A DNA stretch of 64,000 nucleotides. Source: Arachis hypogaea (Eukaryota; Streptophyta; Magnoliopsida; Fabales; Fabaceae). The notes beneath the pieces were generated by a model. The model ran no database searches and was not told the origin of the DNA. It saw only the letters and a list, made by a program, of their open reading frames with translations. This document shows positions 3,853 to 61,944 of this stretch, piece by piece (position 1 is the first letter of the stretch; every line of letters begins with the position of its first letter). Location: contig NC_092053.1 of the NCBI RefSeq assembly GCF_003086295.3, positions 91,236,745 to 91,300,744 of the forward strand, given 5' to 3'. Both the position numbers and the translations under genes were made by a program.

Positions 3853-3870
3853 AGATTCGAGGACGAATCT
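3853..3870 (+). other. Hairpin with AGGA loop just before the polypurine tract
   Basis: Arms AGATTCG and CGAATCT pair perfectly (7 bp) around an AGGA loop. Five nucleotides (TTTTC) separate the hairpin from the polypurine tract. Here the hairpin lies inside the integrase reading frame; equivalent hairpins in the other elements are noncoding. Confidence 0.75.
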
Positions 3871-3875
3871 TTTTC

Positions 3876-3888
3876 AGGAGGGAGGGAA
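3876..3888 (+). other. Polypurine tract, plus-strand DNA primer site
   Basis: AGGAGGGAGGGAA abuts the TG of the 3' LTR at 3889 and is preceded by a T-rich stretch. In LTR retrotransposons this RNA segment resists RNase H and primes plus-strand synthesis. Confidence 0.85.
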
Positions 3889-10860: not shown

Positions 10861-12685
10861 ATGTCCGGTGCCGGAGGTCCTACGGGACCCTCTCATGAGC
10901 ATCAACAAGACCAACTTAAGAGAAGTATTAAAAAGGTAAGAAAAGATGGAGAAGGTTTTACTGGCACTCAACTTCTCCTACCAAGAGATGAGGAATGGAT
11001 GCGAGACAGCATGGAATTAGAGGGGAACTTTAAAGCTGAAAAATCTTTTGCCCAAATGGTAAGAGGTGGACTCACTAAAGACCAAATGGAAGAAGACATC
11101 ATTGAACTTAGTAAAGAAGGAAACATAAGCAGTGAAGATGGCAAAGAAGAGAAAGAGCATCGAGAAGAGGAAACTGACACTTGCAACACAGAGAACATAA
11201 GAGTAGAGAAGACTAAAGAGGGCCTCTATAATATCGTCATTAGTGATGCACTGATGCTATTGAGAGAGAACTTTGGAAGCCATGGTGGAATACCTTAATA
11301 GTAAAGTTGATGGGTAAAAGGGTGGGATATGCTGTCAAAAGAAGGTTAGAGGCCATGTGGAACAAAAAAGGGACCGTAGACGTTATTGACTTAAGCAACG
11401 ATTTTTATCTAGTCAAATTCTATGCTAGTGAGGATTTTGACTTTGCCCTCATGGAGGGGCTTTGGAAGGTTTATGACCACTACCTAACTGTCAGGCTGTG
11501 GGAGCCAAATTTTAATCCACTAAGAGCTATAATTGACAAAATCACAGCATGGGTGAGGTTACCGGGTTTGCCGATTGAGCTTTATAACGGAACCATATTG
11601 AGGAAAATAGGTAATCTTATTGGAAGAACGGTAAAGGTTGATAATAACACAGCCAATCTGTGTAGAGGAAAATTCGCCCTGCTATGTGTAGAGGTAGATC
11701 TCACCAAACCTTTGATGGGAAAGTATTTGATTAATGGAGAAGAGTACCATGTGGAGTATGAAGGAATCCACCAAATCTGTTTTATATGTGGAAGAATAGA
11801 CCATGATCAACAGCATTGCAATATAAGAAAAGAGAAAGAGGTGGCAGCAGGAGTGGAAAGCAGCGAACAAAGCACATATGAAAAAGAAGAAAATCAGTAT
11901 GAAAAACAAAATGAGCAAATTGCAGAAGAACCAGCAATGGAAAATAATTTGAACAAAAAAGAGAAAAGCAAGCAAATTATGATAGAGCAGAATGACAACT
12001 ATGGAGCATGGATGGTAGTGCAGAGGCCAAAAAGGGGAAAGAAGAATGAAGAAACCAAACAGGGAGGTGGATCAAGCAGAGCTAAAGAGAAGCAAAGCAA
12101 CAAAGAAAACCAGTCCAGATATAGTGTTCTACAAGTGGAAGACTCGACACCAGAGCATGAGGAAAGGATTGAAGTAGCACAAGGAGAAGAGCAAGGAAAC
12201 AACAATGATACTACAAAGGAAAACAAAACGACAAAAAGAGAAAATACACAAACAAAAAGAAGAAGAACGCAGAAAACAAACAGATCCAACCCAAAGGAAA
12301 AATAACAGAAGTGGATAATAGTAAAACAGGTAGTAAAGCTACAGGAAGTTCCTTGACAGCACCACAATACAAGAAATAAGGAGAAAGACAAATAGAAAAA
12401 AAAGCACACAACAAAGACCACAAAGAAGTCATTCACCATGAAGAAAATTGGGTAGAGGAAAATTTCTCTTCACCAACAATAATGGAAGAAGAGATTGCAC
12501 CCTCAATCCAATCCCCACCAAATGAAAGAAAACCACCTGATCCCATGATCACAGATGAAGGAGGAAAGGAGATGATGGAGACAGAGAACGAAGAGAAAGA
12601 TACACATCAAAGCTTACTTAAGGGAGTTGATTTTACAACCCCTGTCAATAGTGTGCTGAATGACACTCAGATGCACTTAGCCTGA
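10861..12685 (+). pseudogene. LINE ORF1, RNA-binding protein, frame-shifted
   Basis: Start ATG at 10861 opens 145 codons; the frame is lost near 11280-11300 and the conserved part resumes in another frame (11307-12305). That part reads as a DUF4283 domain (LMGKRVGYAV..., LWKVYDHYLTVRLWEP) followed by a CX2CX4HX4C knuckle, CFICGRIDHDQQHC, near 11779-11820. The highly charged C-terminal tail (E/K/N/Q-rich) breaks at 12305 and continues in a third frame to 12685. In active LINEs ORF1 coats the RNA. At least two frame breaks make this copy non-functional. Confidence 0.8.
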
Positions 12686-12737
12686 TGTGGTTTCTTATGT
12701 ATCCTTTGGTTTTTATTTATTTTTTCGTTTCTGTTTA

Positions 12738-13916
12738 ATGATTAGTTTAATTTGGAATGTGAGAGGTGCGGCTAGTGGTACTTTTAGACGCACTCTTAAA
12801 AATATGATAAACCAATACAAACCTGACATCACTATTCTTCTTGAAATTAAATGTAGTAGAGATACAGCCACTAGAGTTATTCAACATCTTGGTTTTACTA
12901 AATCCATAAGAGAGGAAGCTCAAGGGTTTGTGGGTGGAATTTGGATTCTCTGGAATAGGATGGACATTGACATCACCATGATGGAAATGCATAGTCAATA
13001 CATACATGTTAGAGTTCAAGTCAACGGAGAGAAAGAAAGGTATTTAACTGCGGTCTATGCTAGTCCAAATAATCAAATCAGAAAACTTTTGTGGCCAAAG
13101 CTTGTGCACATTGCGAACTCAATGGCAGGAGATTGGCTCGTAGCTGGAGATTTTAATGAAATTAAGGAAGCATCGGAAAAGAAAGGAGGGGCAGCTGTGA
13201 ATATCAGAGCTTGCAATATTTTTTCAAATTGGATCAATAGTTGCAGACTCATAGATCTAGGGTTCGTTGGCCCTAGATTTACCTGGAAAGGTCCTAAATG
13301 GGAAGGTCAAGACAGAGTCTTTAAGAGACTGGATAGAGCCCTATCAAACCACTTTTGGAGAACGAGATTTCATAAAGCGACTACTGAAGTTCTTACCAGA
13401 ACAAACTCAGATCATCATCCCATCCTCATTCAGAATGTGAAGCTTATTAACGGAGAAGGAAAAAAGCCCTTTAGATTTGAGGCTATGTGGACTCACCATC
13501 CAGACTTTCAACACTGCCTCAAAGACAGCTGGAACAGAGATAATACACTCCCTTCGGCATTAAGAAACCTAAAGAATGATCTGCTGAAGTGGAATAAAGA
13601 TATTTTTGGAAACATATTCAAAGCTAATAGAACTATATTGAACAGAATCACAGGGATCCAAAGGAGTGCCTCTTATGGAAATAACCCCTTTTTGGAGGAG
13701 TTAGAGCAAAAATTAAATAAAGAACTCAATGACATTTTGGATAGAGAGAAAACCTTTTGGATGCAGAAATCTAGGCAAAATTGGATTATCGAGGGAGATA
13801 GAAATACTAGATACTATCATACAAAAACCATCGTAAGAAGAGGAAAGAATAAGATTTTAAAGTTAAGAGATACAAACGAAAATTGGATAGAAGATGAAGA
13901 TACCTTAAAGACTCAC
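12738..13916 (+). pseudogene. LINE ORF2, endonuclease domain only, truncated
   Basis: The ATG at 12738 opens the AP-endonuclease-like domain (MISLIWNVRGA), which nicks target DNA. Visible motifs are the catalytic Glu region (LLEIKC), VYASPN, GDFNEI and the SDHHPI active-site His. About 390 codons are open without a stop up to the E1 insertion at 13917, so this half was intact when E1 arrived. The reverse transcriptase domain is missing from the window. Confidence 0.85.
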
Positions 13917-15698: not shown

Positions 15699-15736
15699 AA
15701 TCTCCCCACACTTAAACCAAGCATGTCCTCATGCTT
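15699..15736 (-). other. E1 polypurine tract with AGGA-loop hairpin
   Basis: In element orientation: arms AAGCATG/CATGCTT (7 bp, plus-strand 15719-15736) around an AGGA loop, then 5 nt, then AAGTGTGGGGAGATT (15713-15699) abutting the LTR. Confidence 0.85.
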
Positions 15737-17196: not shown

Positions 17197-17235
17197 ACCT
17201 CCCCACACTTTAGAAATTAGCACGGTCCTCCGCGC
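17197..17235 (-). other. E1 second hairpin-plus-polypurine module, upstream copy
   Basis: In element orientation: arms GCGCGG/CCGTGC (6 bp with one G-U, plus-strand 17220-17235) around AGGA, then 9 nt, then AAGTGTGGGGAGGT (17210-17197). It lies at the end of ORF3, about 1.5 kb upstream of the LTR-proximal module. The equivalent is at 36218-36256 in E2. Confidence 0.7.
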
Positions 17236-17361
17236 TACGAATAATACGCAAGAGACGGTCGGGACCGGAACCTTCACCATCCCCTTCATCAGAGCTCCCA
17301 TCACTTGGGTTTGAGGTGGATGTGAATATTTCGGGTTCCTCCATGCTAGGGGTAACACAAC
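17210..17361 (-). pseudogene. E1 ORF3, C-terminal tail, split off by Feral-like insertion
   Basis: The minus frame continues ORF3 from 27822 across the insertion. About 50 codons, acidic and Ser/Asp/Gly-rich (SDGSSDEGDGEGSG), ending at TAA (plus-strand 17210-17212) that overlaps the second polypurine module. The ACAAC target duplication of the insertion lies at 17357-17361. Confidence 0.65.
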
Positions 17362-20727: not shown

Positions 20728-22439
20728 ATGAGCAGGAGCAAGGACAAGAACATTCTTGTTGAAGCAGACCCTGAACCTGAAAGGACTCTGAAGCAGAAAC
20801 TGAGAGAAGCTAAAATACAACAATCTAGAGACAACCTTACAGAAAATTTTGAAAAGGAAGAGGAGATGGCAGCCGAAAATAATAATAATGCAAGGAGGAT
20901 GCTTGGTGACTTTACTGCACCTAATTCCAATTTACATGGAAGAAGCATCTCCATTCCTGCCATTGGAGCAAACAATTTTGAGCTGAAACCTCAATTAGTT
21001 TCTCTGATGCAGCAGAACTGCAAGTTTCATGGACTTCCATCTGAAGATCCTTTTCAGTTCTTAACTGAATTCTTGCAGATCTGTGATACTGTTAAGACCA
21101 ATGGGGTTGATCCCGAGGTCTACAGGCTTATGCTTTTCCCGTTTACTGTAAGAGATAGAGCTAGAGTATGGTTGGACTCTCAACCTAAGGATAGCCTGAA
21201 CTCTTGGGATAAGCTGGTCACGGCTTTCTTAGCCAAGTTCTTCCCTCCTCAAAAGCTTAGTAAGCTTAGAGTGGATGTTCAAACCTTCAGACAGAAAGAA
21301 GGTGAATCCCTCTATGAAGCTTGGGAGAGATACAAGCAACTGACCAAAAAGTGTCCTTCTGACATGCTTTCAGAATGGACCATCCTGGATATATTCTATG
21401 ATGGTCTGTCTGAATTAGCTAAGATGTCATTGGATACTTCTGCAGGTGGATCCATTCACCTAAAGAAAACTCCTGCAGAAGCTCAAGAACTTATTGACAT
21501 GGTTGCTAACAACCAGTTTATGTACACTTTTGAGAGGAATCCTGTGAGTAATGGGACACCTCAGAAGAAGGGAGTTCTTGAAATTGATGCTCTGAATGCC
21601 ATATTGGCTCAGAACAAACTATTGACTCAGCAGGTCAATATGATTTTTCAGAGTCTGAATGGAATGCAAGCTGCATCCAACAGTACTCAAGAGGCATCTT
21701 CTGAAGAAGAAGCTTATGATCCTGAGAACCCTATGGAAACACCTATAACCCCTCATGGAGAAATCACCCAAATCTCTCATGGAAGGATCAACAAAAGCCT
21801 CAACAAGGCTTTACTAATGGTGGAAGAAACAGGTTTAACAATAGTAAACCTTTTCCATCATCCACTCAGCAACAGACAGAGAATTCTGAACAGAATCCAT
21901 CTAGCTTAGCAAATTTAGTCTCTGATCTATCTAAAGCCACTCTGAGTTTCATGAATGAAACAAGGTCCTCCATTAGAAATCTAGAAGCACAAGTGGGCCA
22001 GCTGAGTAAAAGGATCACTAAAACCCCTCCTAGTACTCTCCCAAGCAATACAGAAGAGAATCCAAAGAGAGATTGCAAGGCCATTGATATAACCATCATG
22101 GCCGAATCCAAGGAGGAAGGGGAGGACGTGAATCCCAAGGAGGAAGACCTCCTGGGACGTCTAGTGATCAACAAGGAGTTTCCCTTTGAGGAACCAAAGG
22201 AATCTGAGGCTCATTTAGAGACCATAGAGATTCCATTGAACCTCCTTATGCCCTTCATGAGCTCTGATGAGTATTCTTCTTCTGAAGAGAATGAGGATGT
22301 TACTGAAGAGCAAGTTGCCAAGTACCTTGGTGCAATCGTGAAGTTGAATGCCAAATTATTTGGTAATGAGACTTGGGAAGAAGAACCTCCCTTGCTCACC
22401 AATGAACTGAGTGATCTGGATCAACTGAGATTGCCTTAG
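20728..22439 (+). pseudogene. gag of the Feral-like element, frame-shifted
   Basis: I chose the ATG at 20728 (MSRSKDKN), the counterpart of the T-element gag start MSGTGRS. An in-frame ATG at 20683 is also open. The retrotransposon gag domain is clear: FELKPQLVSLMQQNCKFHG, then DRARVWLDSQP, LAKFFPPQKL and YEAWERYKQLTKKCP. The frame is lost near 21755-21790, where the conserved reading (FNNSKPFPSSTQQQ, then LSFMNETRSSIRNLEAQVG) moves to frame 3 and runs to a TAG at 22437-22439. Gag forms the particle and packages RNA. No CCHC knuckle is seen; the region where it would lie is damaged. Confidence 0.85.
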
Positions 22440-23027
22440 AAGAAACAGGATTCTGGAAAATTCCTAATACCTTGTACCAAAGGCACCATGACCTTTGAGA
22501 AGGCTCTATGTGACCTGGGGTCAGGAATAAACCTCATGCCACTTTCTGTAATGGAGAAACTGGGAATCTTTGAGGTACAAGCTGCTAGAATCTCATTAGA
22601 GATGGCAGACAATTCCAGAAAACAGGCTTATAGACAAGTAGAGGACATGTCAGTAAAGGTTGAAGGCCTTTACATCCCTGCTGATTTCATAATCCTAGAT
22701 ACTGGGAAGGATGAGGATGAATCCATCATCCTTGGAAGACCCTTCCTAGCCACAGCAAAAGCTGTGATTGATGTGGACAGAGGAGAATTGATCCTTCAAC
22801 TAAATGAGGACAACCTTGTGTTTAAAACTCAAGGATCTCTCTCTGTAACCATAGAGAGGAAGCATGAAAAGCTTCTCTCACTGCAGAGTCAACCAGAGCC
22901 CCCACAGTCAAACTCTAAGTTTGGTGTTGGGAGGCCACAACCAAACTCTAAGTTTGGTGTTGAACTCCCATATCCAAACTCTAAGTTTGGTGTTGGAAAG
23001 TCTCAACAATGCTCTGAACATCTATGA
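22440..23027 (+). pseudogene. Aspartic protease domain and tail of gag-pro
   Basis: Continues the frame of 21951-22439 beyond the in-frame TAG. The protease core is CDLGSGINLMPLSV (Asp-Leu-Gly as active site) with IILGRPFLATAKAVIDV as the second half, matching the T and E1 proteases. The C-terminus carries three 11-residue repeats (PNSKFGVG core), encoded by 33-nt units that each contain AAGTTTGGTGTTG, the polypurine core of this element. The stop at 23027 is followed by the double hairpin at 23047-23093. Confidence 0.8.
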
Positions 23028-23966: not shown

Positions 23967-24003
23967 TTGCTTGAGGGCGAGCAATATTCTAAGTTTGGTG
24001 TGG
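23967..24003 (+). other. Hairpin plus polypurine-like copy just before ORF3
   Basis: TTGCTTG/CGAGCAA (7 bp with one G-U) around AGGG, six nt, then AAGTTTGGTGTGG. It resembles the LTR-proximal module at 26175-26212 over about 35 nt and lies 30 nt before the ORF3 start at 24034. Confidence 0.7.
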
Positions 24004-24033: not shown

Positions 24034-25113
24034 ATGGAAATATTCATCTCCAAAGCCCATCAAGACCACTTCTATGATGTTGTGGCCAAGAAGAAGGTGA
24101 TCCCCGAGGTCCCTTTCAAACTCAAGAAAAATGAGTATCTAGAGATCCGACATGAGATCTAAAGAAGAGGTTGGGAAGTTCTAACAAACCCCATCCAACA
24201 AGTCGGAATTCTAATGGTTCAAGAGTTCTATGCTAATGCATGGATCACTAGGAACCATGATCAAAGTAAGAACCCGAACCCAAAGAATTATCTCACCATG
24301 GTTCGAGGGAATTACTTAGATTTTAGTCCAGAAAATGTGTGGTTGGCATTTAACTTGCCAATAATGGAAGAGAACGCACGCCACTACACAAGGAGAGTCA
24401 ACTTTGATCAAAGGTTGGACCAAGTCCTCATGGACATATGTGTGGAAGGAGATCAATGGAAGATTGACTCAAAAGGCAAACCAATTCAACTAAGAAGACT
24501 GGACCTTAAGCCTGTAGCTAGAGGATGGTTGGAGTTCATTCAACGCTCAATCACTCCCACTAGCAACCGGTCTGAAGTTACTGTAGACCGGGCCATCATG
24601 ATCCATAGCATCATGATTGGAAAAGAGGTGGAGGTTCATGAGATTATACCTCAAGAACTCTACAAGGTGGCTGACAAGTCCTCCACTATGGCAAGGTTAG
24701 CTTTTCCTCACCTCATTTGCCATCTATGCAATTCGGCTGGGATTGACATAGAGGGAGATATCCTCATTGATGAGGACAAGCCCATCACTAAGAAAAGGAT
24801 GGAGCCAACAAGAGAGCATATTCATGGATCTCAAGGGACGCATGAAGAAGCTCATCACCAAGAAATCCCTGAGATGCCTCAAGGGATGCACTTTCCTCCA
24901 CAGAATTTTTGGGAGCAAATCAACACCTCCCTAGGAGAATTAAGTTCCAACATGGGACAATTAAGGGTAGAACATCAAGAGCACTCCATCATCCTTCATG
25001 AAATTAGAGAAGATCAGAGAGCAATGAGGGAGGAGCAACAGAGACAAGGAAGAGACATAGAAGAGCTCAAGGACATCATTGGTTCTTCAAGAAGGAAACG
25101 TCACCATCACTAA
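24034..25113 (+). pseudogene. ORF3: plant-transposon-protein-like domain (Feral-like element)
   Basis: Open from ATG 24034 (MEIFISKAHQ) apart from a TAA at 24160-24162. Conserved landmarks shared with ORF3 of E1 and T: RRGWEVL, VQEFYANAW, an LKPVARGWLEFIQRSI-type helix, SEVTVDRAIMIHSIMIGKEVEVHEII, then IGSSRRKRHHH at the C-terminus. It resembles the family annotated in plant genomes as 'putative plant transposon protein'; its role is unknown to me. The last third (about 24890-25080) is polar and heptad-like (LGELSSNMGQLRVEHQE), suggesting a coiled coil. In the full E1 element the equivalent ORF lies 3' of integrase, where Athila carries its env-like gene, but no clear membrane segment is seen here. 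Confidence 0.7.
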
Positions 25114-26174: not shown

Positions 26175-26212
26175 GTTGCTTGGGGACAAGCAACAATTTA
26201 AGTTTGGTGTTG
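26175..26212 (+). other. RGGA-loop hairpin and polypurine tract (Feral-like)
   Basis: GTTGCTTG/CAAGCAAC (8 bp) around GGGA (26183-26186), five nt, then AAGTTTGGTGTTG (26200-26212), directly abutting the 3' LTR at 26213. Confidence 0.85.
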
Positions 26213-34674: not shown

Positions 34675-34711
34675 AATCTCCCCACACTTAAACCAAGCAT
34701 GTCCTCATGCT
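34675..34711 (-). other. E2 polypurine tract with AGGA-loop hairpin
   Basis: In element orientation: AGCATG/CATGCT (6 bp, 34711-34696) around AGGA, six nt, then AAGTGTGGGGAGATT (34689-34675) abutting the LTR. Confidence 0.85.
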
Positions 34712-36217: not shown

Positions 36218-36256
36218 ACCTCCCCACACTTAGAAATTTGCACCGTCCTCGGTGCA
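36218..36256 (-). other. E2 second hairpin-plus-polypurine module
   Basis: In element orientation: TGCACCG/CGGTGCA (7-bp perfect stem, 36256-36239) around AGGA, seven nt, then AAGTGTGGGGAGGT (36231-36218). The surrounding ~60 bp match E1 17180-17235, but the hairpin arms differ with pairing kept. Confidence 0.75.
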
Positions 36257-46379: not shown

Positions 46380-47730
46380 TGACGAACGATTGTCCCCAAG
46401 GGTGTATTGGTAAAGATTTTCTTCAATAAAATTACGTTGCAAGTATAGCTCTACCAACAACAATCCTCGGGTGTCAAATTTAGAAGAGGGATTTGGTTGT
46501 CACAAGTTCAACCCCAATAGAAATAACCGAAGTATTCAAACCTCTGGTCGTCTCACAAGGAATGGGCAAACATATGCTTCAACATTTGTTAGAAATCCGA
46601 GGTTGTGAGTTATGAGCATGAAAATAAATGAAAATCTTAACAAGCAAGTAATCTTAAATTGCAACAAACTAATTCAATTAACTAAGCAAAACATGAGCAA
46701 TTCCAATGAATAAGTAACATTCCACTTAATTCTATTATAAACCAAACAAGTAACTATAACTAAAGCAAATAATTGAGAAAGTTGGTTTTCAAATATGAAT
46801 AATAAAAGCAACTCTTGGCTAGGCATGGGAATTGGGATCACCATCCTTGTCTAACAACCATATCTTGACAATTATAAGGAACCAAGCTCATTAAGTCTAC
46901 CCTCAAAGTCTTAAGTACGTGATATCTACTCCTAGACTTGAAGTACGTCAAATGGCTTTGATCACATCAACCCATAAGTCCCAACCTACCTACTAATTAG
47001 ATTAGTAGTGGGTTGGCGTCAATGAGTATCAAATTGACCATCAAGGGCTCCCAAATCATCAAATCCATTAGACCCAATGACTCAAGTTTACCCAATTCCC
47101 TTGACCTAGGCCAAGAGTAAAGAAGACTACTCCATAATCAAAGTAAACAATTCATCGAACACATGGTAAGCATTAACAAAAGACATGTTCAAAATAGCAA
47201 TTAAATTAGAATCTACAAATACCCACTAACAATTATCAACATACAATCATCAAAACAACAAGACTAAACATAGAAATCATCAATGTAACATCAACAAGTC
47301 AAGAATCACAACATTCATGAAATGGGTATAAAATGACAAGTAACAAGGATTCATAAACTAGCACAAGATATAAGCAAAATTGTAGCAAGGAATTCAAATT
47401 GAACAATTAAAACTAGCAATTAACAAGATCCAATTCATAAATCAACAAGGGAAGATCAAATTAAAACTAGATCTAGAGAGGAACAAGGGTTTCTCTCTCT
47501 AGAATCACCCAAGAACCAAAAACTAGCTAAAAATTATGTCCTAGTGTAAAATGATTGATCCCCCCTTTCCCCCTAGCATCCTTGGGTCTTTTTCCATGCA
47601 GAAACAGCTTGAAATTGGGCCTCATAAGCCTCAGAAATTGCCAGACATGATTTCCTTTAATGAGGTCACGTGCAGCTTCCCACGCGTGCGCGCCATGCGT
47701 GCGTGCGCGTCGATTGCTTTTGCGATCCAC
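46380..47730 (-). repeat. E1 5' LTR, truncated by element T
   Basis: Aligns with 13917-15270 and stops at 47730/47731, where T's LTR (TGATGTGCG) begins. The rest should lie beyond T's far end, outside the window. CCACA at 47727-47731 is the expected left target duplication of T. Confidence 0.9.
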
Positions 47731-48615
47731 ATGATGTGCGAAAAACGATCTGACACAAAACTCACCGGCAAGTGCACCGGGTCGCATCAAGTAATAATAA
47801 CTCACGGGAGTGAGGTCGATCCCACAGGGATTGAAGGATTGAGCAATTTTAGTTTAGTGGTTGATTTAGTCAAGCGAATCAAGATTTGGTTGAGTGATTT
47901 GTGATTTGCAGAATTTAAATTGCATGGAAAATAAAGGGAATGGGTAATTGGCATGAAATTAAAGAGAACAGGAAATAAAGTGCTGAATCTTAAAGAGCAA
48001 GAAATTAAATGGCAGAAACTTAGAACGCAAGAAATGTAAATTGCAGAATCTTAAAGTGCAAGAAATGTAAATGGCTTAAATTGTAAAGGGAATTGGGAGT
48101 TGGATTTGCAGAAATTAAACAAGGAAAAGTAAAATTCAACAAACAGAAGAGTAAAAGATGGCTTGGATTGAACCGGATCTAAAAACAAAAATGTAAATGA
48201 GCTTGAAAGCAGTAAACAGAGAATGTAAAATGATAATTCAGATCTCAGGACCCAAGAGACTAGATAACCAAGTCTAGATCTCAATGCCTTCCTAGATCCA
48301 ACAAGAACAATTGCAAAGGAAATGTAAATTGCAGAGAAAGTAGATGAAGAAGCAATTAACAGAAATTTAAATTCAATTGTGCAGTAAAGAAACAAAGAGT
48401 TCTCAGGATGAGATTGAAACAGAATTCCTTCAATTCTCCAACCCAAGATCCAAGACAATTGTAATTGAAATTGAAAGCAAGAAGACTAAGAGGAAGGGAA
48501 TTCAATTCTCCTTCCCCGAGACTTAGAAATTAAAATTCACTCAACACCAAAAGCTCTCCGAAAACTCTCTATGAAAACTAAAAGGAAAAAGCTCTTTAAA
48601 AACTTAAATCCTATG

Positions 48616-48624
48616 CTATTTATA
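48616..48624 (-). promoter_or_regulatory. TATA box in T left LTR
   Basis: TATAAATAG on the minus strand. In the middle LTR the same site (57304-57312) reads TTTAAATAG. Confidence 0.7.
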
Positions 48625-48754
48625 CACTTTCTTCAAATGGTCTTCAATCCTTCAATTGGGCCTTTTCTCTTGATGGAATTGGGTTGATAGAGGCCTTGGT
48701 TGATTGCTCTTGGAGTTTGGAGAAGAACCGAAGTGAACCGGGTTTGGAATCATG

Positions 48755-49225
48755 AAAGCTTGAGTAAAAGTTTGAGTAAAAGTTTGAGGCAAACTTTTAC
48801 TCAAACTTTTCATATCAGCCACCCCATTTTGCTGCTACCAACGTTTGAGCTAAAGTTTGGGGTCAAACTTTTGCTCAAACGTTGGCTCCCCTTGCACACT
48901 CATGGCGCCAACGTTTGCCAAAATGTTTGAGGCAAACGTTGGCGCAAGCTTTTGCTCTCCAGGGTGTGTTGTTCATGGCGCCAACGTTTGCCAAAAAGTT
49001 TGAGGCAAACGTTGGCGCAAACTTTTGCTCTCCAGGGTGTTGATTTGTGATGCCAAAAGTTTGCCAAAAAGTTTGAGGCAAACTTTTGCTCAAGCTTTTT
49101 GCCCAAAAGTTTGCACAAAAGTTTGAGGCAAACTTTTGGTCAAGCTTTTTGCTCCCTGGTTCGTTTTCACTTATTCCAAAAGTTTGAGCTAAAGTTTGAG
49201 GCAAACTTTTGCTCAAACCTTTTGT
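48755..49225. repeat. Nested inverted-repeat array in T LTR
   Basis: Many units of AAAGTTTGAGGCAAACTTTTG and GCCAACGTTTGCC. The clearest hairpin has 15-bp perfect arms, GCGCCAACGTTTGCC (48978-48992) and its complement (49004-49018), with an 11-nt loop. The array lies 130-600 bp upstream of the TATA box. A copy is at 57447-57912. Confidence 0.9.
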
Positions 49226-49527
49226 CCTCTCTTCCTCCTAGCCATTCCTTCTTGCTTCAACCTTTCTCCAAGCTTTCTTCACCTATCATTAATAAACCAA
49301 ACACATCAAAGCTATGCTCAAAATCATGAGATATTCATTCTTTCATAATATGTGACAATTATAGCATAAAACCTCATGAAATTGCATTAATTCATCTATG
49401 GTTGATTAAATCAAAGGAAGCATGAAAATCTACCCAATTGGCTTGCTTATGGCTCAAGAAAGTGCATAATTCAATTGAAAACAAAAGAAAAAGGCTAGTG
49501 AAACTAGGCTAAGATGACTTGTCATCA

Positions 49528-49564
49528 CAACACCAAACTTAAAGCTTGCTTGTCCCCAAGCAAG
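49528..49564 (-). other. RGGA-loop hairpin and polypurine tract, T copy 1
   Basis: In element orientation: CTTGCTTG/CAAGCAAG (8 bp, 49564-49545) around GGGA, four nt, then AAGTTTGGTGTTG (49540-49528) abutting the LTR. Confidence 0.85.
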
Positions 49565-50562
49565 AAAAGATTTATTGAGAAGAAAGAATGAAATGGAAGA
49601 GGATGTTCATGCTAGTAGAGTGTTATTGGTAGTTCATGGGATTTTATGTGGATATGTAAACACTCACTTTTTATTGACTCTTAAGCCTAGAAAGTCTCCT
49701 TCAAGCTTCAAGTAACATACTGCTATGACCTCTCGTTATTCCTTTATCCTTGGCTATTATTTTGTTCATAAGCTTTATTTGAGTGTCATGTGTAGCAAGT
49801 TCATTTTATTTTCTTTATACTTGACACATTATTCACTATAGACACTTGGCTCACATTCCTTCTTAAAACATTGATGCCCAGCACCTCTTTGGGCTACTAA
49901 ATGCCTTGTAGTTAGGTTGCTCTTGATAGTGGACTTTCAGCTGATGATCCCGGGTTAGTTAACCCAAGTCACCGAGTGTTGATGCACTCCAAAGAACTTA
50001 GTAGTCCAAGCAGATCCTAATACAAAGACACCACAGGCATATATTCTAAGGTTCAAGCTATTGGTGTCCAGCTTTGTTTCTTTTTTGTTTTCTTTTGTTC
50101 TGCCACTCTTTCGCTATTTCTTTTTCTCCCCTTTTTTTCTTTCTTTTTGTTTTTCTTTCTAACCAAGGATTTTTATTTGATTGAGATTCATAGACAGTAG
50201 GCCACTTTCTACTTAGAGGGAGACATCCTAGTTCTCTTATTCACTAAAAGTGAGCTATCATACAATCACACATACATACCACCACTTACTTTTATTATAC
50301 TTCTATCTAACAGAGAACTATCTCACTTCATTTTCAAATATTTCTTTTATTGAATTAAAGATGCAGGGGACAAAACATGCTTTTTGTTCAGTGAAAGTAA
50401 ACACACAAGTACACACATAGAATAGCTTACTTATTTTAAGAGGAACAAACATAATGCAAAGACTATTAATTATAATAACTACTTAAAGATGCAAAGACAA
50501 CTTAAAACAGATACAATGCATGCTTTTTCTTTGTAGTGATGAACAAGGAGCAAGTCCACCTT
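49565..50562. other. T 3' noncoding region
   Basis: No supported gene between ORF3 and the polypurine tract; contains a T-rich run near 50080-50160. Confidence 0.7.
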
Positions 50563-52170
50563 TCATTTGTCATGCTTTTTCTTTCTTCTTTCATACACTT
50601 GGTTGCTGGTGTTCCCTGTGTCCATGTCTGTTGTCTGTTGATCCCGCCAGAAACCAGCTCTATTCATCGCTTCCTCTACTCTATCTTCCAGTTTCATAGC
50701 ATTGCTTACTTCTATCTCACTTCTCCTTTTGAAGAATTCATCGAAGGTTGGAAATGCTGGATCCATGTTGTGCAGATGCTCTCCAATATAGTTCAGCTTG
50801 ATTTGACTATTTATGTTGTAGTCGGCTTGGGCTTCATATCTTGCATCTTGGAGGATTGTGAACTCTTTGAGAGCCCTCAAATTTTCAGCTTGCATTTGTT
50901 CCAACTTTCCAAATGATTCATGAGATTGAAAAGCATGCTCTTCTTGCATCACAAGGAATTTTGACTCAAATTCACTTTGTTTGTTCATCATTCTTAGCTC
51001 CCGTTCTTCTTGCTCTTGTTGGTTTTTCATGTATAGTGAATGGTATTCCTCTTGCCTTTCTTGAATTCTCATGTACTGTTGTGATAATCTTCCAATTGCT
51101 TCCTGCATTTGAGTCATATCCAGGTTGTTATGTGGGGGAATGTACTGCTGTTCCTCTTCCTCTTGTGGCTCTTCTTCCTCTTGTAACTCTTCTTCCTCCA
51201 TTGGTTCTTCTCTTTGCCTTCTTCCATGTGGTCTTCGGCCTTGATGTGCTTCAGGAGCCATCATCATTCTTTCAATGGTTATAGGCATGCCTTGGCTCAA
51301 CCACGTTGGATTCTCCTCTTCCATTGGCACTTTAGCCTTTGCACACAACCTCCAAATGGTACTTGGATAGTATAACCAAGACCCGGCCGAGTTCTTCTCA
51401 GCAAGCTTTTGAATGTCTTTTGCCAAGATTTCATGAACTTTTACCTCTCCTCCCACAATGATGCAATGCAACATAACAGCTCTCTTCCTGTTAACTTCTG
51501 AGGTGTTTACTGTGCCCAGAATTGATCTTTTCAACAACTCATACCATCCCTTTGCTTCCGGGGTAAGGTTACCTCTCTTCAGATACTTGTATTTGTTCTT
51601 GTCATCTCCTTCCCACTCTGAGTTCTCCATACAAATATCTCTAGCAATCCCATCATAATCCGGATCATCATTTACCCTTTGGTGGTATCCCGGTTCACTA
51701 AAGCAGACTGATTTTAGTCCCAAGACTTTCTTAATTGCATCCGAGCTAAAGTCTACTTCCACTCCCCGCACATAGCTCTTGTATGTTGGGGCCTCACTCA
51801 TGTCAAGCCTTGAAACATTGGCATAGAACTCTATTATGATATTAGCATTGATCCGGGTGATTGGTGATATGAGTTCCTCCCACCTCCTCTTTCGAATTTT
51901 GTCCTTCATTTCTTGGCATCCATCATCCGGCAGCAAGAGTGGAATTTCTGGATATATCTTCTTCTCATTCATCCATTCAATTTGCATCTGATGGTACCGA
52001 GATTTGAATCTCCATCGGTCATATTCAGGGGTGCTCTCCTCCACCATGGGATATTTCCTTTTCTTCGTTTGGTTCTTGAGGAAGAGGCCATGATCACTTG
52101 GTTGTTTGAGACTCTTGAGGTTAAAGGGAGTGTGAAGAATATTGGAGATTTTGATGTATATTTGGAGCAA
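50563..52170 (-). CDS. ORF3, copy 1: plant-transposon-protein-like
   Basis: 535-codon open minus frame. Landmarks shared with other ORF3s: RKRRWEELISP, EFYANVSRLD, SSDAIKKVLGL, LTPEAKGWYELLKRSILGTVNTSEVNRKRAVMLHC (cut into short segments in the paralogues) and VKVHEILAKDI. A Glu-rich segment (EEEELQEEEE) and a long Gln/Glu-rich, probably coiled-coil C-terminal half follow, ending KKKHDK. The upstream ATG at 52091 (MASSSRTKRRK) is in a different frame, so the original start may be lost by a one-base change near 52062 that both copies share. Function unknown; no pol domain nearby. Confidence 0.6.
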   Translation of the reverse strand: MLQIYIKISNILHTPFNLKSLKQPSDHGLFLKNQTKKRKYPMVEESTPEYDRWRFKSRYHQMQIEWMNEKKIYPEIPLLLPDDGCQEMKDKIRKRRWEELISPITRINANIIIEFYANVSRLDMSEAPTYKSYVRGVEVDFSSDAIKKVLGLKSVCFSEPGYHQRVNDDPDYDGIARDICMENSEWEGDDKNKYKYLKRGNLTPEAKGWYELLKRSILGTVNTSEVNRKRAVMLHCIIVGGEVKVHEILAKDIQKLAEKNSAGSWLYYPSTIWRLCAKAKVPMEEENPTWLSQGMPITIERMMMAPEAHQGRRPHGRRQREEPMEEEELQEEEEPQEEEEQQYIPPHNNLDMTQMQEAIGRLSQQYMRIQERQEEYHSLYMKNQQEQEERELRMMNKQSEFESKFLVMQEEHAFQSHESFGKLEQMQAENLRALKEFTILQDARYEAQADYNINSQIKLNYIGEHLHNMDPAFPTFDEFFKRRSEIEVSNAMKLEDRVEEAMNRAGFWRDQQTTDMDTGNTSNQVYERRKKKHDK

Positions 52171-53195
52171 GAAGAGATTTGAGGCTGAGCTTATTATGAT
52201 GAGAAATGATGAAGGGAATGGAGTTTAAATGGTTGTGGTGCAATGATTCGGTCATATGCATGGCTTGAAGGTGGTGTGTGTCATTTAAATGAACAATGAA
52301 GGGCTAGGATGCAATTGGATACTATGTGAATCAACGGTGTGCATGTAAGGATGAATGAAGACAAAGCTTGCTTCTTCAATTGTCTTTGCCGTGATCATCT
52401 CAAGGAGTGGCAGATTCTCCTTTTGAGGCATGTGATGAGATTCTGTCCTCATGCTATGCTTTCCTTTGTCTTGTCTTTTTCATTGAGTGTTCTTTTGACC
52501 ACCTAGTCATCACAACAAGACAACATATATTAGCATAATCAAACCGTGGCAAGAATGCTTCCTTCTTTAACACTATATGAATCATCATTCCTTATATCCA
52601 TTTGAACCGTGACTTTTCTTGGAGGACACCAAACTTAATGTTTGGTCATATAGTTACAAATGTGTCTCTTCCTCCAACTAGTGAAATCCCAATGTCACTC
52701 TTGATTACATGTTTATAAGAAATGTTTTCATCATAATTTTTCTTTTTCTCCTTTTTTTTTTTCATGAAGGATCAATTGTGTCTCTAAATCAGTGCATCAA
52801 GGTTTGATGAACACCAAACTTGTCTCTTGCTTAAGGGGTAAATGTGAGATGCTAGTAGTTAATCACAATTGATGCCTTCATCACAGAATGTGATTTCTTT
52901 TTAATTGAAAAGTCTCAGTAAGAGATAATGTATGATCATTGATGCATGATTTTTTTTTTAATTTTCATGAGAAGAGAAACACCAAACTTAGTGTTTGGTC
53001 ATATGCTAGGCATATAGTATGAAAATGTTTGTAACCTGGTTTGGTGTGCTTGAAGGCACACCAAACTTTAGAAGTCTTAGCATATGTAAAAAAAAAAAAA
53101 TTGTATGCATTCATTAAGTATGTCCATGAAAAGAAAAAAAATTCATGCTCAGGTGATCATAGCTTATTGAATTTAAAATGACATAAATCTTAAAT
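52171..53195. other. T spacer between ORF3 and gag-pro, with polypurine-core copies
   Basis: Noncoding. Four minus-strand AAGTTTGGTG copies (plus-strand 52627-52636, 52812-52821, 52980-52989, 53059-53068). Two sit in a dyad CCAAAC-N5-GTTTGG (52629-52647, 52982-53000); another dyad, GTTTGGTGTGC/GCACACCAAAC, is at about 53039-53066. Confidence 0.75.
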
Positions 53196-53243
53196 CATGG
53201 GTTGCCTCCCATGGAGCGCTCTTTTATTGTCACTAGCTTGACA
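53196..53243 (-). other. Double hairpin after the gag-pro stop, T copy 1
   Basis: In element orientation: hairpin 1 TGTCA-AGCTAG-TGACA (53243-53228), linker ATAAAAGAGCGCTC, hairpin 2 CATGGG-AGGCAA-CCCATG (53213-53196). It starts 14 nt after the stop at 53257. Confidence 0.75.
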
Positions 53244-53256
53244 TTGGAGCTTTCTT

Positions 53257-56223
53257 TTATGGTGGTTGAGGATTGTAGTGCCTCAACTTGTCTCCCCTGA
53301 CTGTGATCCTCCTCTTTGTTCTCTGGTGTTCAATTTCAGCATGTTCCAACGAGAGTATGTTGCTGACAGTGTAATAGTCATCAGTTTGTTGGCTTGCTCC
53401 CAGTTGTTGATATATCAATTGCACTTTGTCACCTTTGGAAAGCCCCTCTGTTGGAATCTTCCAGTTCTTCCAACCCCTTTTTGTTTTGTTTTTGCATTTC
53501 ATCCCCTTTTTTGTTGATCTTTCTTTTCTGGCTGTAGGCTTACCTTGGGGATCTCTTTCTTCAGTGGCTAATACTCCAATATCCTCTTGGACTTTCTCAT
53601 CCTTCTGCACAATCTTCTGCCTTGGGATGTTGTTGTGAATCACCTTGTCAATTTCCATATAGTCCCTTTTCTCATTGTTAAACTGGGCTTCTGGTAATAC
53701 CTTCAGAGTGACACTCTTATCATGCATCCTGAGAGTTAGTTCTCCTTGCTCTATGTCTATGATAGCTCTAGCAGTGGCCAAGAATGGCCTTCCCAGTATA
53801 ATAGAGTTACCATCATCCCCATCTGAATCTAGAACCACAAAATCTACAGGGTATATGAAATTGTCCACCTTGACCAGAAGGTTTTCAATCATACCCCTGG
53901 GGTATACCGTTGACTTATCTACTAGCTCTAGAGATATCTGTACCGGTTTAACTTCCTCTATACGCAGCTTTTTCACCAAGGAGGATGGTATTAAGTTAAT
54001 ACTTGCTCCTAGATCGCACATTGCTTTAGTGATGGTTAATTCCCCAATGGTGCAAGGCAGCAAGAAGCTCCCTGGGTCCTCAAGCTTTGGAGGAAGCCCT
54101 TTTTGAATCAAGGCCCTGCATTCCTCAGTAAGCAGTATGGTTTCTTTCTCATCCCAACTTCTTTTCTTATTGATAAGCTCCTTCAAAAAATTGGCATACA
54201 GAGGTATTTGCTCAAGTGCTTCAGCCAAGGGAATATTGATCTCCAGCTTCTTGAGAGTCTCAAGGAACTTATGAAATTGTTGGTCCTTTGCCTCCTTGTT
54301 GAATCTTTGGGGATATGGTAGTGGAGGCACAAAGGCCTTCTCTGCTTGTTGCTTTTGATTCTTTGTTGGCTCTTCAATTGCTTCATTCCCCTTTTTTGGA
54401 ATTTTTGATTGTTCCTCCTTTTCTTGAATTTGCTTTGAAGCTTGCTTGCTTGCCATTGCATCATCATCATTGGCTTCTTCTGTGTGTGTTGACTATTTAT
54501 CCTTCTCTTTGAGTTTCTCAGTGCTCTTGTTTAGCATCACAACTTGATCTTTGGCTTCATCTTCCTTTGTTTGCTCCTCATCTTCTATTGGCCTTTTGCT
54601 GCTCTCTGCTTGCTTCCTTGTAGTGTCATTGTTGCTCATCAATATTCTCCCACTCCTTAATTGTATTGCCTTGCATTCTTCCTTAGGATTTGGGATTGTG
54701 TCACTCGTCAGTGAGCTTGAAGGTCTCTCAACAGAAATCTGTTTGGAGATTTGCCCAATTTGTCTCTCTAGGCTCTTTATGGAAGCTTCATGGTTCTTGG
54801 TAGTCATTTCCTGGTGTTTCAACATTTTGTCTATCAAGGTCTCCAAGTTAGTGAGTCTTTGAGATTCAGGTGATACTTGAGGTGGGTTGTGAGATGTGGG
54901 TGGTGGATGGTAGGCATTTTGGTTGGTGGGTTGGTTATTGGATTGGTATTGGTTGGGGTTGGGGTAGTTGTTTTGAGGTTTTCTGTAGGGGTTCTGGTTA
55001 GTTTGCTGTTGGTTGTGGTTTTGGTTGCTTCTTGGGTTGTTTTGGTTTGAGTTCCTCTGCCATGGTTGTTAGTTTTGGGTGTGATTATCTCCCCATCTGA
55101 GGTTTGGGTGGTTCTTCCAGGATGGATTGTATGTATCACCATACACTTCATTTGGTCCTTAGTTGTGCATGTACTGTACTTGCTATTGTTGTTGCTCTTC
55201 TTGAGTTTCTTCATTTTGCCCCCATGTGGATGATGGTTGGCTTGTGTTAACTGCTGCAACTTGGAGGCTATCAATCCTCTTGGCCATTTGCTCAAATTGT
55301 TGTTGAATTTGCTGCTGCATCATCTTGTTTTGAGCCAAGATTGAGTCCACTCCTTCTAGCTCCATTACTCCTCTCCTTTGTGATGGTTGGCGGTTTCTTT
55401 GATGAGCAAAGAAATATTGATTGTTGGCCACCATGTCAATAAGATTTTGAGCTTCTTCTGCTGTTTTCATCAGTTGCAATGATCCTCCAGCTGAGTGGTC
55501 AAGTGATTCTTGAGCCTTTAGAGTGAGTCCTTCATAGAAGTTCTGTAGCTTGTCCCACTCAGTGAACATTTCTGGTGGACATTTCCTCAGTAGAGCCTTG
55601 TATCTCTCCCATGCTTCATACAGATTTTCAGCATCCAATTGCGTGAATGTTTGCACCTCAGTCTTCAGCCTGATGACTCTTTGAGGTGGATAGAATTTGG
55701 CTAAAAATTTAGTCACCAAATCATCCCAGCTAGTGATGCTTCCTTGAGGAAAAGTTTCAAGCCATTGTGCGGCCTTGTCCCTTAATGAGAACGGGAACAG
55801 CAGAAGCTTGTAAGTTTCAGGATTCACGCCATTGGACTTGACAGTGTCACAAATCCTTAAGAAGGTAGATAGATGTTGATTTGGATCTTCCAATGGTCCT
55901 CCCCCAAACGAGCAATTGTTTTGGACCAATGTAATGAGTTGTGGCTTCAATTCAAAGTTATTTGCATTGACATTAGGGTTGAGAATGCTGCTTCCACAAT
56001 GTCTAGCATTTGCAAAGGTATAGGAGGCCAATACTCTCCTCTGCTGTGGGTTATTGTTAACCCCTCCTCCTGGATTAGATGGATCTCCTTCCATCTCGTG
56101 ATATTCTTCCTCAGATTCTTCCTCTCCAACAATGTTTTTCCCTCTTTCAGCTCTTCTCAACCTTCTAAGAGTTCTCTGGTCAGTTTCAGATAAAACAAGA
56201 ATGGATCTCCCTGTACCTGACAT
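53257..56223 (-). pseudogene. gag-pro polyprotein, T copy 1, with several stops
   Basis: A single 989-codon minus frame from 56223 (MSGTGRSILV) to 53257. Gag (FELKPQLITLVQNNCSF, LRDKAAQWLETFP, FLAKFYPPQRV, YEAWERYKALLRKCPPEMF), then a Gln/Asn-rich linker, a coiled-coil-like stretch (IKSLERQIGQISKQI), and the protease (CDLGASINLIPSSLV, IILGRPFLATARAIID). In-frame stops: TAG 55183-55185, a TAA near 55159, a TAA near 55069 and TAG 54493-54495. Some are shared with copy 2, some private. No CCHC knuckle is obvious in the linker. Inactive. Confidence 0.85.
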
Positions 56224-56395
56224 ACAAACAAAACAAAAGAAACACCACCAGTACTTCTTCAGTCTATTGCTAGAATGAAGTTTAGTTTAAGCAAAATTTC
56301 AAACAGTTAGCGTGTTAGTTAAAGATTAGAGAAACAGAAAATAAAAATGCTAGATCTAGATCACCTCCTCACTTAATCATTGTCAATCTAATCAA
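56224..56395. other. Short gag leader, T copy 1
   Basis: AT-rich 170 nt between gag start and primer site; no ORF. Confidence 0.6.
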
Positions 56396-56413
56396 TCCCC
56401 GACAACGGTGCCA
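56396..56413 (-). other. T primer binding site, tRNA-Asp type
   Basis: In element orientation TGGCACCGTTGTCGGGGA, two mismatches to the tRNA-Asp complement, six nt from the LTR. Confidence 0.85.
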
Positions 56414-56419
56414 AAAACT

Positions 56420-58216: not shown

Positions 58217-58253
58217 CAACACCAAACTTAAAGCTTGCTTGTCCCCAAGCAAG
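58217..58253 (-). other. RGGA-loop hairpin and polypurine tract, T copy 2
   Basis: Same as 49528-49564: CTTGCTTG/CAAGCAAG around GGGA (58253-58234), then AAGTTTGGTGTTG. Confidence 0.85.
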
Positions 58254-59251
58254 AAAAGATTTATTGAGAAGAAAGAATGAAATGGAAGAGGATGTTCATT
58301 CTAGTAGAGTGTTATTGGTAGTTCATGGGATTTTATGTGGATATGTAAACACTCACTTTTTATTGACTCTTAAGCCTAGAAAGTCTCCTTCAAGCTTCAA
58401 GTAACATACTGCTATGACCTCTCGTTATTCCTTTATCCTTGGCTATTATTTTGTTCATAAGCTTTATTTGAGTGTCATGTGTAGCAAGTTCATTTTATTT
58501 TCTTTATACTTGACACATTATTCACTATAGACACTTGGCTCACATTCCTTCTTAAAACATTGATGCCCAGCACCTCTTTGGGCTACTAAATGCCTTGTAG
58601 TTAGGTTGCTCTTGATAGTGGACTTTCAGCTGATGATCCCGGGTTAGTTAACCCAAGTCACCGAGTGTTGATGCACTCCAAAGAACTTAGTAGTCCAAGC
58701 AGATCCTAATACAAAGACACCACAGGCATATATTCTAAGGTTCAAGCTATTGGTGTCCAGCTTTGTTTCTTTTTTGTTTTCTTTTGTTCTGCCACTCTTT
58801 CGCTATTTCTTTTTCTCCCCTTTTTTTCTTTCTTTTTGTTTTTCTTTCTAACTAAGGATTTTTATTTGATTGAGATTCATAGACAGTAGGCCACTTTCTA
58901 CTTAGAGGGAGACATCCTAGTTCTCTTATTCACTAAAAGTGAGCTATCATACAATCACACATACATACCACCACTTACTTTTATTATACTTCTATCTAAC
59001 AGAGAACTATCTCACTTCATTTTCAAATATTTCTTTTATTGAATTAAAGATGCAGGGGACAAAACATGCTTTTTGTTCAGTGAAAGTAAACACACAAGTA
59101 CACACATAGAATAGCTTACTTATTTTAAGAGGAACAAACATAATGCAAAGACTATTAATTATAATAACTACTTAAAGATGCAAAGACAACTTAAAACAGA
59201 TACAATGCATGCTTTTTCTTTGTAGTGATGAACAAGGAGCAAGTCCACCTT
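58254..59251. other. T 3' noncoding region, copy 2
   Basis: Same layout as copy 1; no supported gene. Confidence 0.7.
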
Positions 59252-61883: not shown

Positions 61884-61931
61884 CATGGGTTGCCTCCCAT
61901 GGAGCGCTCTTTTATTGTCACTAGCTTGACA
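61884..61931 (-). other. Double hairpin, T copy 2
   Basis: Identical arrangement to 53196-53243: TGTCA/TGACA then CATGGG/CCCATG around AGGCAA. Confidence 0.75.
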
Positions 61932-61944
61932 TTGGAGCTTTCTT

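What the first reader, a model, noticed from the sequence alone, without database searches (positions are those of the whole stretch)
3853..3888. Hairpin with RGGA loop 4-6 nt before the polypurine tract in five unrelated-looking element families
Seen directly. Arms (element orientation): CRM-like AGATTCG/CGAATCT, loop AGGA (3853-3870); E1 AAGCATG/CATGCTT, AGGA (15719-15736); E2 AGCATG/CATGCT, AGGA (34696-34711); Feral-like GTTGCTTG/CAAGCAAC, GGGA (26175-26194); T GTTG-less variant CTTGCTTG/CAAGCAAG, GGGA (49545-49564, 58234-58253). The loop is always closed by G-C (GRGGAC), the stems differ with pairing kept, and spacing to the tract is 4-6 nt. In the CRM-like element it lies inside a coding frame, elsewhere in noncoding DNA, so protein constraint cannot explain it. 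Inference: a structural signal for plus-strand priming, RNA packaging or 3' processing. A T-rich 'U-box' before the tract is known; I do not recall this hairpin being described.
Basis: partly seen in the sequence, partly recalled or inferred. Interest (0 to 1): 0.88.

Follow-up and report, generated by a model that had tools for sequence, protein, structure and literature searches.

The report
Conserved hairpin beside retrotransposon plus-strand primer
Many plant jumping genes of the Ty3/gypsy type carry a small RNA hairpin a fixed distance before the purine-rich stretch thought to prime their second DNA strand; its shape is kept while its letters change, so it is probably a working part of how they copy themselves.

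Summary
All six hairpins exist. In the window's own 2.56 Gb genome, GRGGAC lies 9-13 nt before TAAGTKTGGKG at 119,579 sites (reversed-pattern control 3); for GAGGAC, spacing 14-33 gives 56 against 76,603. In 24 distinct 20-mers chosen on loop and PPT, not on stem, 87% of pair cells are paired (59% shuffled, 0/500). Loop to LTR is 24-28 nt in 19 distinct modules of Athila-like and chromovirus-type families. One chromovirus-like family, found by its LTR pair alone, has the same stem and spacing with loop UGGG. A Tat-like family lacks the hairpin (0 of 20). I conclude it is a selected structure forming one module with the PPT. The likeliest role is placing reverse transcriptase/RNase H to define the plus-strand primer; Gag/nucleocapsid binding is the main rival. 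Mechanism is inferred; other plant species could not be tested at DNA level. I found no description in the open papers searched.

The parts
3853..3870 (+). CRM-like element, 3' hairpin AGATTCG-AGGA-CGAATCT, inside the integrase C-terminal frame (..DSRTNLFQEGGND..)
3876..3888 (+). CRM-like PPT AGGAGGGAGGGAA; 3' LTR taken to start at 3889 (TGATACG)
   Evidence: LTR start inferred from TG and from related copies, the other LTR was not found in the window
15719..15736 (-). E1 3' hairpin AAGCATG-AGGA-CATGCTT
15699..15718 (-). E1 spacer plus PPT (AAGTGTGGGGAG); 3' LTR taken to start at 15698 (TGATAAACC, by likeness to E2)
17218..17237 (-). E1 internal hairpin TAGCGCGG-AGGA-CCGTGCTA (one G-U pair), followed by PPT-like AAAGTGTGGGGAGG
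34696..34711 (-). E2 3' hairpin AGCATG-AGGA-CATGCT
34675..34695 (-). E2 spacer plus PPT; 3' LTR starts at 34674
36239..36256 (-). E2 internal hairpin TGCACCG-AGGA-CGGTGCA followed by PPT-like AAGTGTGGGGAGG
26175..26194 (+). Feral-like 3' hairpin GTTGCTTG-GGGA-CAAGCAAC
26195..26212 (+). Feral-like spacer plus PPT (AAGTTTGGTGTTG); 3' LTR starts at 26213
23967..23984 (+). Feral-like internal hairpin TTGCTTG-AGGG-CGAGCAA (one G-U pair), before PPT-like AAGTTTGGTG at 23991 and the ORF 24163-25113 (PF20167)
49545..49564 (-). T element 3' hairpin CTTGCTTG-GGGA-CAAGCAAG; LTR starts at 49527
   Evidence: LTR start also from a related LTR pair (block B2)
58234..58253 (-). T element, second near-identical copy of the same hairpin; LTR starts at 58216

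Best explanation
It is a conserved cis-acting nucleic-acid structure of plant Ty3/gypsy elements: a stem of about 6-8 bp with a four-base loop (RGGA; also AGGG or UGGG) closed by G-C, then a short T/C-rich spacer, then the PPT, with 24-28 nt from loop to the first LTR base. Hairpin and PPT act as one plus-strand priming module, present next to the 3' LTR and, in several Athila-like families, again at a second PPT-like tract about 1-2.3 kb upstream. Most likely working: while minus-strand DNA is copied from the RNA, reverse transcriptase passes the PPT and then meets the hairpin base. Stalling or docking there (with the loop possibly held by RT or nucleocapsid) would put its RNase H, about 13 bp (Ty3) to 17-18 bp (HIV, recalled) behind, near the PPT/U3 border 16-21 nt away, so the primer is cut at a defined place. 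Shown: structure by covariation, fixed spacing, coupling to PPTs, two-module anatomy. Inferred: that it acts in priming, the stalling step, and any protein partner.
For: Own genome: GAGGACN{9,13}TAAGTKTGGKG 76,603 sites (control 3) and the GGGGAC form 42,976 (control 0); GAGGAC at spacing 14-33 only 56 (control 11); first loop base T only 364 (control 25; C not tested). Covariation on 24 distinct 20-mers chosen on loop and PPT, not stem: 87.0% cells paired against 59.1% shuffled, 51 two-side-changed cells against 17.5, score 0.691 against 0.192 (each 0/500); slid controls 23-41%. Of 20 stretches fetched around such sites, mostly with distinct 3' arms, 17 have >=6 contiguous pairs counting G-U. 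Chosen by PPT plus LTR start only: 10 of 14 have a >=6 bp Watson-Crick hairpin and 12 of 14 GRGGAC; random positions 7.8% and 0.9%. In window plus 200 kb, 13 of 13 perfect GNGGAC hairpins lie before a PPT. A family found by LTR pair without regard to hairpins has the same stem and 26 nt spacing with loop UGGG. Loop to LTR 24-28 nt in 19 distinct 3' modules, 25-27 in 17 (the script looked no further than 30 nt and only at stems of 5 or more). Ty3 active-site spacing ~13 bp: review PMC5371799, passages.
Against: No experiment. A plain stall needs a stem but not a conserved loop; the near-fixed loop points to a binding partner. 16-21 nt exceeds Ty3's ~13 bp, and the true RNase H cut sites of these elements are unknown. 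Local folding is mostly not better than shuffled sequence. A Tat-like family does without the hairpin (0 of 20), so it is not needed for plus-strand priming in general. At the PPT-like sites upstream in T no RGGA hairpin was seen. Relatedness inflates the shuffle test, one of its five measures (pairs with any two-sided change) is not above shuffles (7 vs 6.4, 252/500), and all sequences come from one genome.
Confidence: 0.5

Rival explanations
1. The hairpin is a binding site for Gag/nucleocapsid (packaging or chaperone recruitment): exposed G-rich loop read by the zinc knuckle, stem only a scaffold.
For: Where sites were chosen without regard to the loop, 12 of 14 have GRGGAC, and T as first loop base is rare (364 against 119,579), while stems vary: what a loop-reading protein would leave. 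G-rich loops bound by nucleocapsid are known in retroviruses (recalled, e.g. HIV-1 SL3). PMC3616985 says that nucleocapsid enhances PPT specificity (passage).
Against: Strict distance to the PPT and a second copy at the internal PPT-like tract are not needed for packaging; the L134 family has loop UGGG.
Confidence: 0.25
2. The structure acts as DNA or as RNA in another step: hairpin in the exposed minus-strand DNA fixing the primer's 5' edge, RNA dimer or 5'-3' pairing, or splicing of the env-like message.
For: Pyrimidine-rich stretches and, in several, TTTTCAG just upstream of the module resemble a splice acceptor; minus-strand DNA would form the same hairpin.
Against: No GTCCTC or GTCCCC (complement of the loop) in -200 to +400 around the taken 5' LTR ends of Feral, E1 and E2 (the PBS motif was found only in the E1 stretch, so the other two borders are uncertain, and T was not looked at). 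For the 3' copies, which stand directly before the LTR, a role as splice acceptor of an env-like message is unlikely (inference).
Confidence: 0.15
3. No selected structure: a conserved peptide (CRM) or shared ancestry plus chance makes the hairpins.
For: The CRM peptide at this place recurs in homologs (80 of 120); families are related; the number of pairs with any two-sided change is not above shuffles (7 vs 6.4).
Against: No long frame crosses the Athila-like 3' modules and stops fill all three frames upstream of L053, L055 and L056; stems differ at most positions yet pair; same geometry with a different loop in L134.
Confidence: 0.04

Closest known systems
Inverted repeat around the PPT/3' LTR junction in Sireviruses and about half of the other Ty1/copia elements studied (Bousios 2010, PMC2829016)
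   Same: Structure at the PPT, precisely placed, left arm borders the PPT (section 8 read)
   Different: There the PPT and LTR start lie in the loop and the right arm is inside the LTR; here both arms are upstream, the loop is 4 nt, and the upstream tract also has one (theirs lack it)
Extra PPT of Athila4/Calypso (Wright and Voytas 2002, as cited in PMC2829016, passage; original not read) and PPTa of Bongo3 in beet (PMC3605345, passages)
   Same: A second PPT in the region after pol
   Different: No hairpin is mentioned in the passages seen
U-box/T-box upstream of PPTs in retroviruses and Ty1 (named in PMC10085805, passages)
   Same: Upstream cis element that helps plus-strand priming
   Different: T-rich sequence, not a hairpin
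PPT/cPPT RNA structure of HIV-1 and SIV (PMC3616985, passages)
   Same: Structured RNA at both 3' and central PPT
   Different: There the G-rich half of the PPT is itself paired, and the authors think it unlikely that RNA structure modulates priming

Membership tests
LTR-element plus-strand priming site (PPT) | Purine-rich tract directly before the 3' LTR | tested here: met
   LTR starts fixed by LTR pairs for E2 and Feral and a T relative; the tract is partly pyrimidine in Feral/T
LTR-element plus-strand priming site (PPT) | RNase H-resistant tract cut at its 3' end and used as primer | not testable with these tools
   needs biochemistry
Central/extra PPT | Second PPT-like tract inside the element with the same layout | tested here: met
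   E1 17.2k, E2 36.2k, Feral 24.0k, L012, L013, L020
Central/extra PPT | Used as a second plus-strand origin | not testable with these tools
   needs mapping of cDNA ends
Sirevirus/copia PPT inverted repeat | PPT in the loop, right arm inside the 3' LTR | tested here: not met
   both arms lie upstream of the PPT
GNRA tetraloop | First loop base G | tested here: not met
   A at 76,603 sites, G at 42,976
Known Rfam family | Match at the curated gathering score | tested here: not met
   window scan: only snoR71, elsewhere
Athila lineage (E1, E2, Feral, T) | Env-like ORF and extra PPT; RT phylogeny | tested here: inconclusive
   PF20167 ORF in Feral and T (that this is the env-like ORF is inferred), internal tract in E1/E2/Feral; no RT tree made
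Chromovirus (CRM-like window element; L134 family) | RT, RNase H, integrase with Tf2-1-like SH3 domain | tested here: met
Chromovirus (L134 family) | Chromodomain after the integrase | tested here: inconclusive
   no Pfam match in the one 76 aa frame tried, in a copy with broken frames

The most novel reading that the evidence does not exclude
The hairpin is a built-in ruler for reverse transcriptase, ancestral to the plant chromovirus and Athila-type branches of Ty3/gypsy and absent or lost in Tat-like elements: RT held at the hairpin places its RNase H at the PPT/U3 border, at the 3' end and again at an internal second origin. It would be a structured plus-strand priming signal of a kind I found no description of for LTR elements.
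Probability: 0.35. Interest if true: 0.87.

Novelty: new variant of a known kind. Interest (0 to 1): 0.77.

Why it matters
The molecular details of PPT-primed plus-strand initiation were called largely unknown in a review (PMC3185511; start of abstract, passages). A local hairpin at fixed distance, with about 120,000 matching sites in one crop genome, gives a directly testable signal for how the primer end is chosen. It would also serve as a partly sequence-independent landmark for 3' LTR borders and internal priming sites in plant genomes. Some copies have lost the pairing (L018, L027, L041, L046), as expected if selection acts only while elements are active.

Tried and rejected
Rejected: GNRA tetraloop (A is the commonest first loop base); loop pairing with the 5' end (no GTCCTC/GTCCCC near the taken 5' LTR ends of Feral, E1, E2; T not looked at); general folding stability as the argument; a PPT-junction inverted repeat in the Tat-like family as a substitute (12 distinct arm pairs: 5.25 pairs observed, 5.19 shuffled, 865 of 2000 shuffles at least as high).

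Led nowhere: pol protein and hairpin patterns in IMG/VR (none; 56 contigs, of which 3 have 6 or more Watson-Crick pairs, taken as chance); a G-run PPT pattern (16 hits, control 1, mostly unrelated); the first pattern (none of the 8 loci has a stem of 3 or more). Of the 20 stretches, L049 and L050 come from the pattern and have no stem, L061 has 4 bp (taken as chance), and the other 17 have 5-10 bp, of which the inner 4 were set by the pattern. L040 (a tandem repeat) was kept in the pair count. In the 50 kb block no GNGGAC hairpin of 6 or more was printed (part of it reads N). The PF24626 family search did not complete. Protein structure prediction and RNA covariance models were not used.

Full report
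WHAT WAS CHECKED. The six hairpins are present as described. All perfect hairpins (stem >=6, loop 4) of the window were scanned on both strands: seven have loop RGGA closed by G-C; shuffles give 0.067 on average, at most 1 in 30 shuffles. Self-comparison shows nested elements: E1 LTR copies from 13917 (3' side) and from 46380 (where the T sequence begins at 47.7k), E2 LTRs 32983-34674/39970-41660, Feral LTRs 17362-19018/26213-27817, and a T repeat with period about 8.69 kb from 47.7k to the window end.

WHERE IT SITS. The missed hairpins are inside elements, each followed by a PPT-like tract of the same kind as at the 3' end. In the Feral-like element the internal one lies just before an ORF matching PF20167 (24163-25113). 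In a 200 kb sample taken at fixed coordinates (L009-L028), 6 of 6 perfect GNGGAC hairpins precede TAAGTTTGGTG. Pairs of modules 2.1-2.3 kb apart recur there (L012 3213/5300, L020 5968/8035; L013 4790/7071, the first with loop AGGA closed by G-U).

GENOME SCALE. The window lies in a 2,557,474,382-base assembly, probably peanut (inferred from size and recalled repeat names). Counts on both strands, with the reversed pattern as control in brackets: GAGGACN{9,13}TAAGTKTGGKG 76,603 (3); GGGGAC form 42,976 (0); GAGGAC at spacing 14-33 56 (11); GTGGAC form 364 (25) (GCGGAC not tested). Chromovirus form TTCGRGGACGAAN{4,24}GGAGGRR: 211 (1). These counts include decayed copies and a few very large families; they show fixed spacing and loop, not independent events, and they do not test the stem.

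STEM COVARIATION. I fetched 20 short stretches from the first places listed (all on one contig), mostly with distinct 3' arms and without knowing the 5' arm: 17 of 20 have 6 or more contiguous pairs counting G-U; exceptions are L040 (a tandem repeat), L041 and L046. With the window and the 200 kb sample this gives 37 sites, 24 distinct 20-mers, chosen on loop and PPT only. On these, 87.0% of cells pair against 59.1% in shuffles, 51 cells have changes on both sides against 17.5, and the covariation score is 0.691 against 0.192, each 0 of 500; further pair types 18 against 14.8 (18/500); sliding the partner by 1-3 columns drops pairing to 23-41%. The count of pairs with any two-sided change is not above shuffles (7 vs 6.4, 252/500), and related sequences inflate this test. 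Shuffling whole 3' arms among the 24 gives 3.73 of 7 pairs (at most 4.71 in 2000), observed 5.96. Five further GGGGAC sites keep 8-9 pairs counting G-U (5 of 5).

TESTS BLIND TO THE HAIRPIN. (a) Sites chosen by PPT plus LTR start alone: 14 in window plus 200 kb (mostly Feral- and T-type); 10 have a Watson-Crick stem of 6 or more and 12 have GRGGAC. At 20,000 random positions the figures are 1,563 and 183. (b) In a further 50 kb block (L133-L137) LTR pairs pointed to a family with LTR start TGTAAGACCC. Directly before its 3' LTR stands GAATTTTG-TGGG-CAAAATTC: 8 bp, four-base loop, G-C closed, 18 nt before the LTR. The two copies lie in a near-identical duplication, so this counts as one family. 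Its frames match gag, protease, RT, RNase H and SH3_Tf2-1 domains, so it is chromovirus-like; a chromodomain was not matched. Stem, loop size and distance are kept with another loop.

DISTANCE. In 19 distinct 3' modules, 24-28 nt separate the last loop base from the first LTR base (25-27 in 17 of 19); from stem base to LTR 16-21 nt. That script took LTR starts by motif, looked no further than 30 nt and only at stems of 5 or more, so it cannot show longer distances. It covers one CRM-like copy (L059), the TGTAAGAA-type copies (L053-L056, lineage not established), Feral, T and E families with quite different PPTs. LTR starts of E2 and Feral agree with LTR-pair ends, that of a T relative too. The window's CRM-like element has 25 nt by position, its LTR start being inferred.

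CODING OR NOT. In the CRM-like element the hairpin reads S-R-T-N in the integrase tail. Of the best 120 homologs listed (of 3,846; several bear names of flowering plants), 80 show an [SL][RW][TSA]N motif there and 40 show none under my expression; 14 sequences were printed. So protein constraint may act in CRM. In the Athila-like 3' modules no long frame crosses the hairpin, and upstream of L053, L055 and L056 stops occur in all three frames.

WHERE IT IS NOT. A Tat-like family (PPT ..AGCAGGGGCAC|TGTTC; 5,339 genomic matches to CAGGGGCACTGTT, control 2) shows no GRGGAC in the 75 nt before the LTR in 20 of 20 copies fetched, and a stem of 6 in 1 of 20; one more copy in L016 has none either. The name Tat-like rests on layout and recall; domains gag, RT and integrase were matched. 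Ty1/copia elements were not sampled. At the upstream PPT-like sites of T no RGGA hairpin was seen. The hairpin matches no Rfam family at gathering score in the window.

HOW IT MAY WORK. The hairpin goes with PPTs, also with the second tract, at fixed distance; this couples it to plus-strand priming. During minus-strand synthesis RT crosses the PPT and then reaches the hairpin base; its RNase H trails by about 13 bp in Ty3 (PMC5371799, passages) and 17-18 bp in HIV (recalled). The LTR border lies 16-21 nt away, or about 2 nt less if the cut leaves two bases before TG (recalled for retroviruses). That makes stalling or docking at the hairpin a reasonable way to place the cut. The near-fixed loop suggests that RT or nucleocapsid may also read it. 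No step of this is shown by experiment.

LITERATURE. Searches for PPT with hairpin, stem-loop or structure terms, for Athila, CRM and Ty3 priming, and for the hairpin strings themselves (listings) brought no description of this hairpin that I saw. The library holds open-licence papers only, figures and supplements were not seen, and Wright and Voytas 2002 was not read. Closest is the copia/Sirevirus inverted repeat with the PPT in its loop (PMC2829016, passages, section 8). Also seen as passages only: PMC3601003 (names a PPT-in-loop stem in SIRE and HIV and calls for a search in other elements), PMC1142308, PMC11963269, PMC6317226, PMC11381356 (Ty3 PPT lies in a paired region), PMC3185511, PMC3059260 (group A CRM PPT highly similar between distant species), PMC3605345, PMC3616985 and PMC10085805.

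VERDICT. A real, selected structure, coupled to PPTs, in at least two branches of Ty3/gypsy in this genome. Its role in plus-strand priming is probable, its mechanism open, its spread across plants untested here at DNA level.

Noticed in passing
window 22917-22992 (+); 52636-53068 and 61325-61759 (-): Repeated PPT-like motif AAGTTTGGTG without the RGGA hairpin; at 22.9k in steps of 33 bases and partly self-complementary (ACCAAACTCTAAGTTTGGT). Resembles the multiple PPT copies reported in Sireviruses (PMC2829016).
   Followed up: partly
window 47729-64000: T element sequence repeated with period about 8,688 bases at 99.4% identity: tandem LTR-element arrangement.
   Followed up: no
window 13.9k-47.7k: E1 appears to be an outer element interrupted by a Feral-like element and by E2.
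   Followed up: partly
window 21262-21369 (-): Rfam snoR71 match (43.6 bits, cut-off 40) on the strand opposite the gag-type ORF of the Feral-like element.
   Followed up: no
L138-L157 and L016:4201-4340: Tat-like PPT/LTR junctions have short arms on both sides (such as AGCTCGAG..GTCGAGCT), like the copia junction repeat, but pairing is not above shuffled arms.
   Followed up: yes
G000 matches: A recurrent site GTGGACCTTGCATTGTCTAAGTGTGGGG with a PPT-like end but another 3' arm; structure not examined.
   Followed up: no
G000 C12:98353322-98355021 and C11:143503249-143504108: CRM-like PPT regions repeated at about 830 base spacing: perhaps tandem repeats derived from a retrotransposon end.
   Followed up: no
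window 12681-13916 (+): ORF with Exo_endo_phos domain, possibly LINE-derived, next to E1.
   Followed up: no
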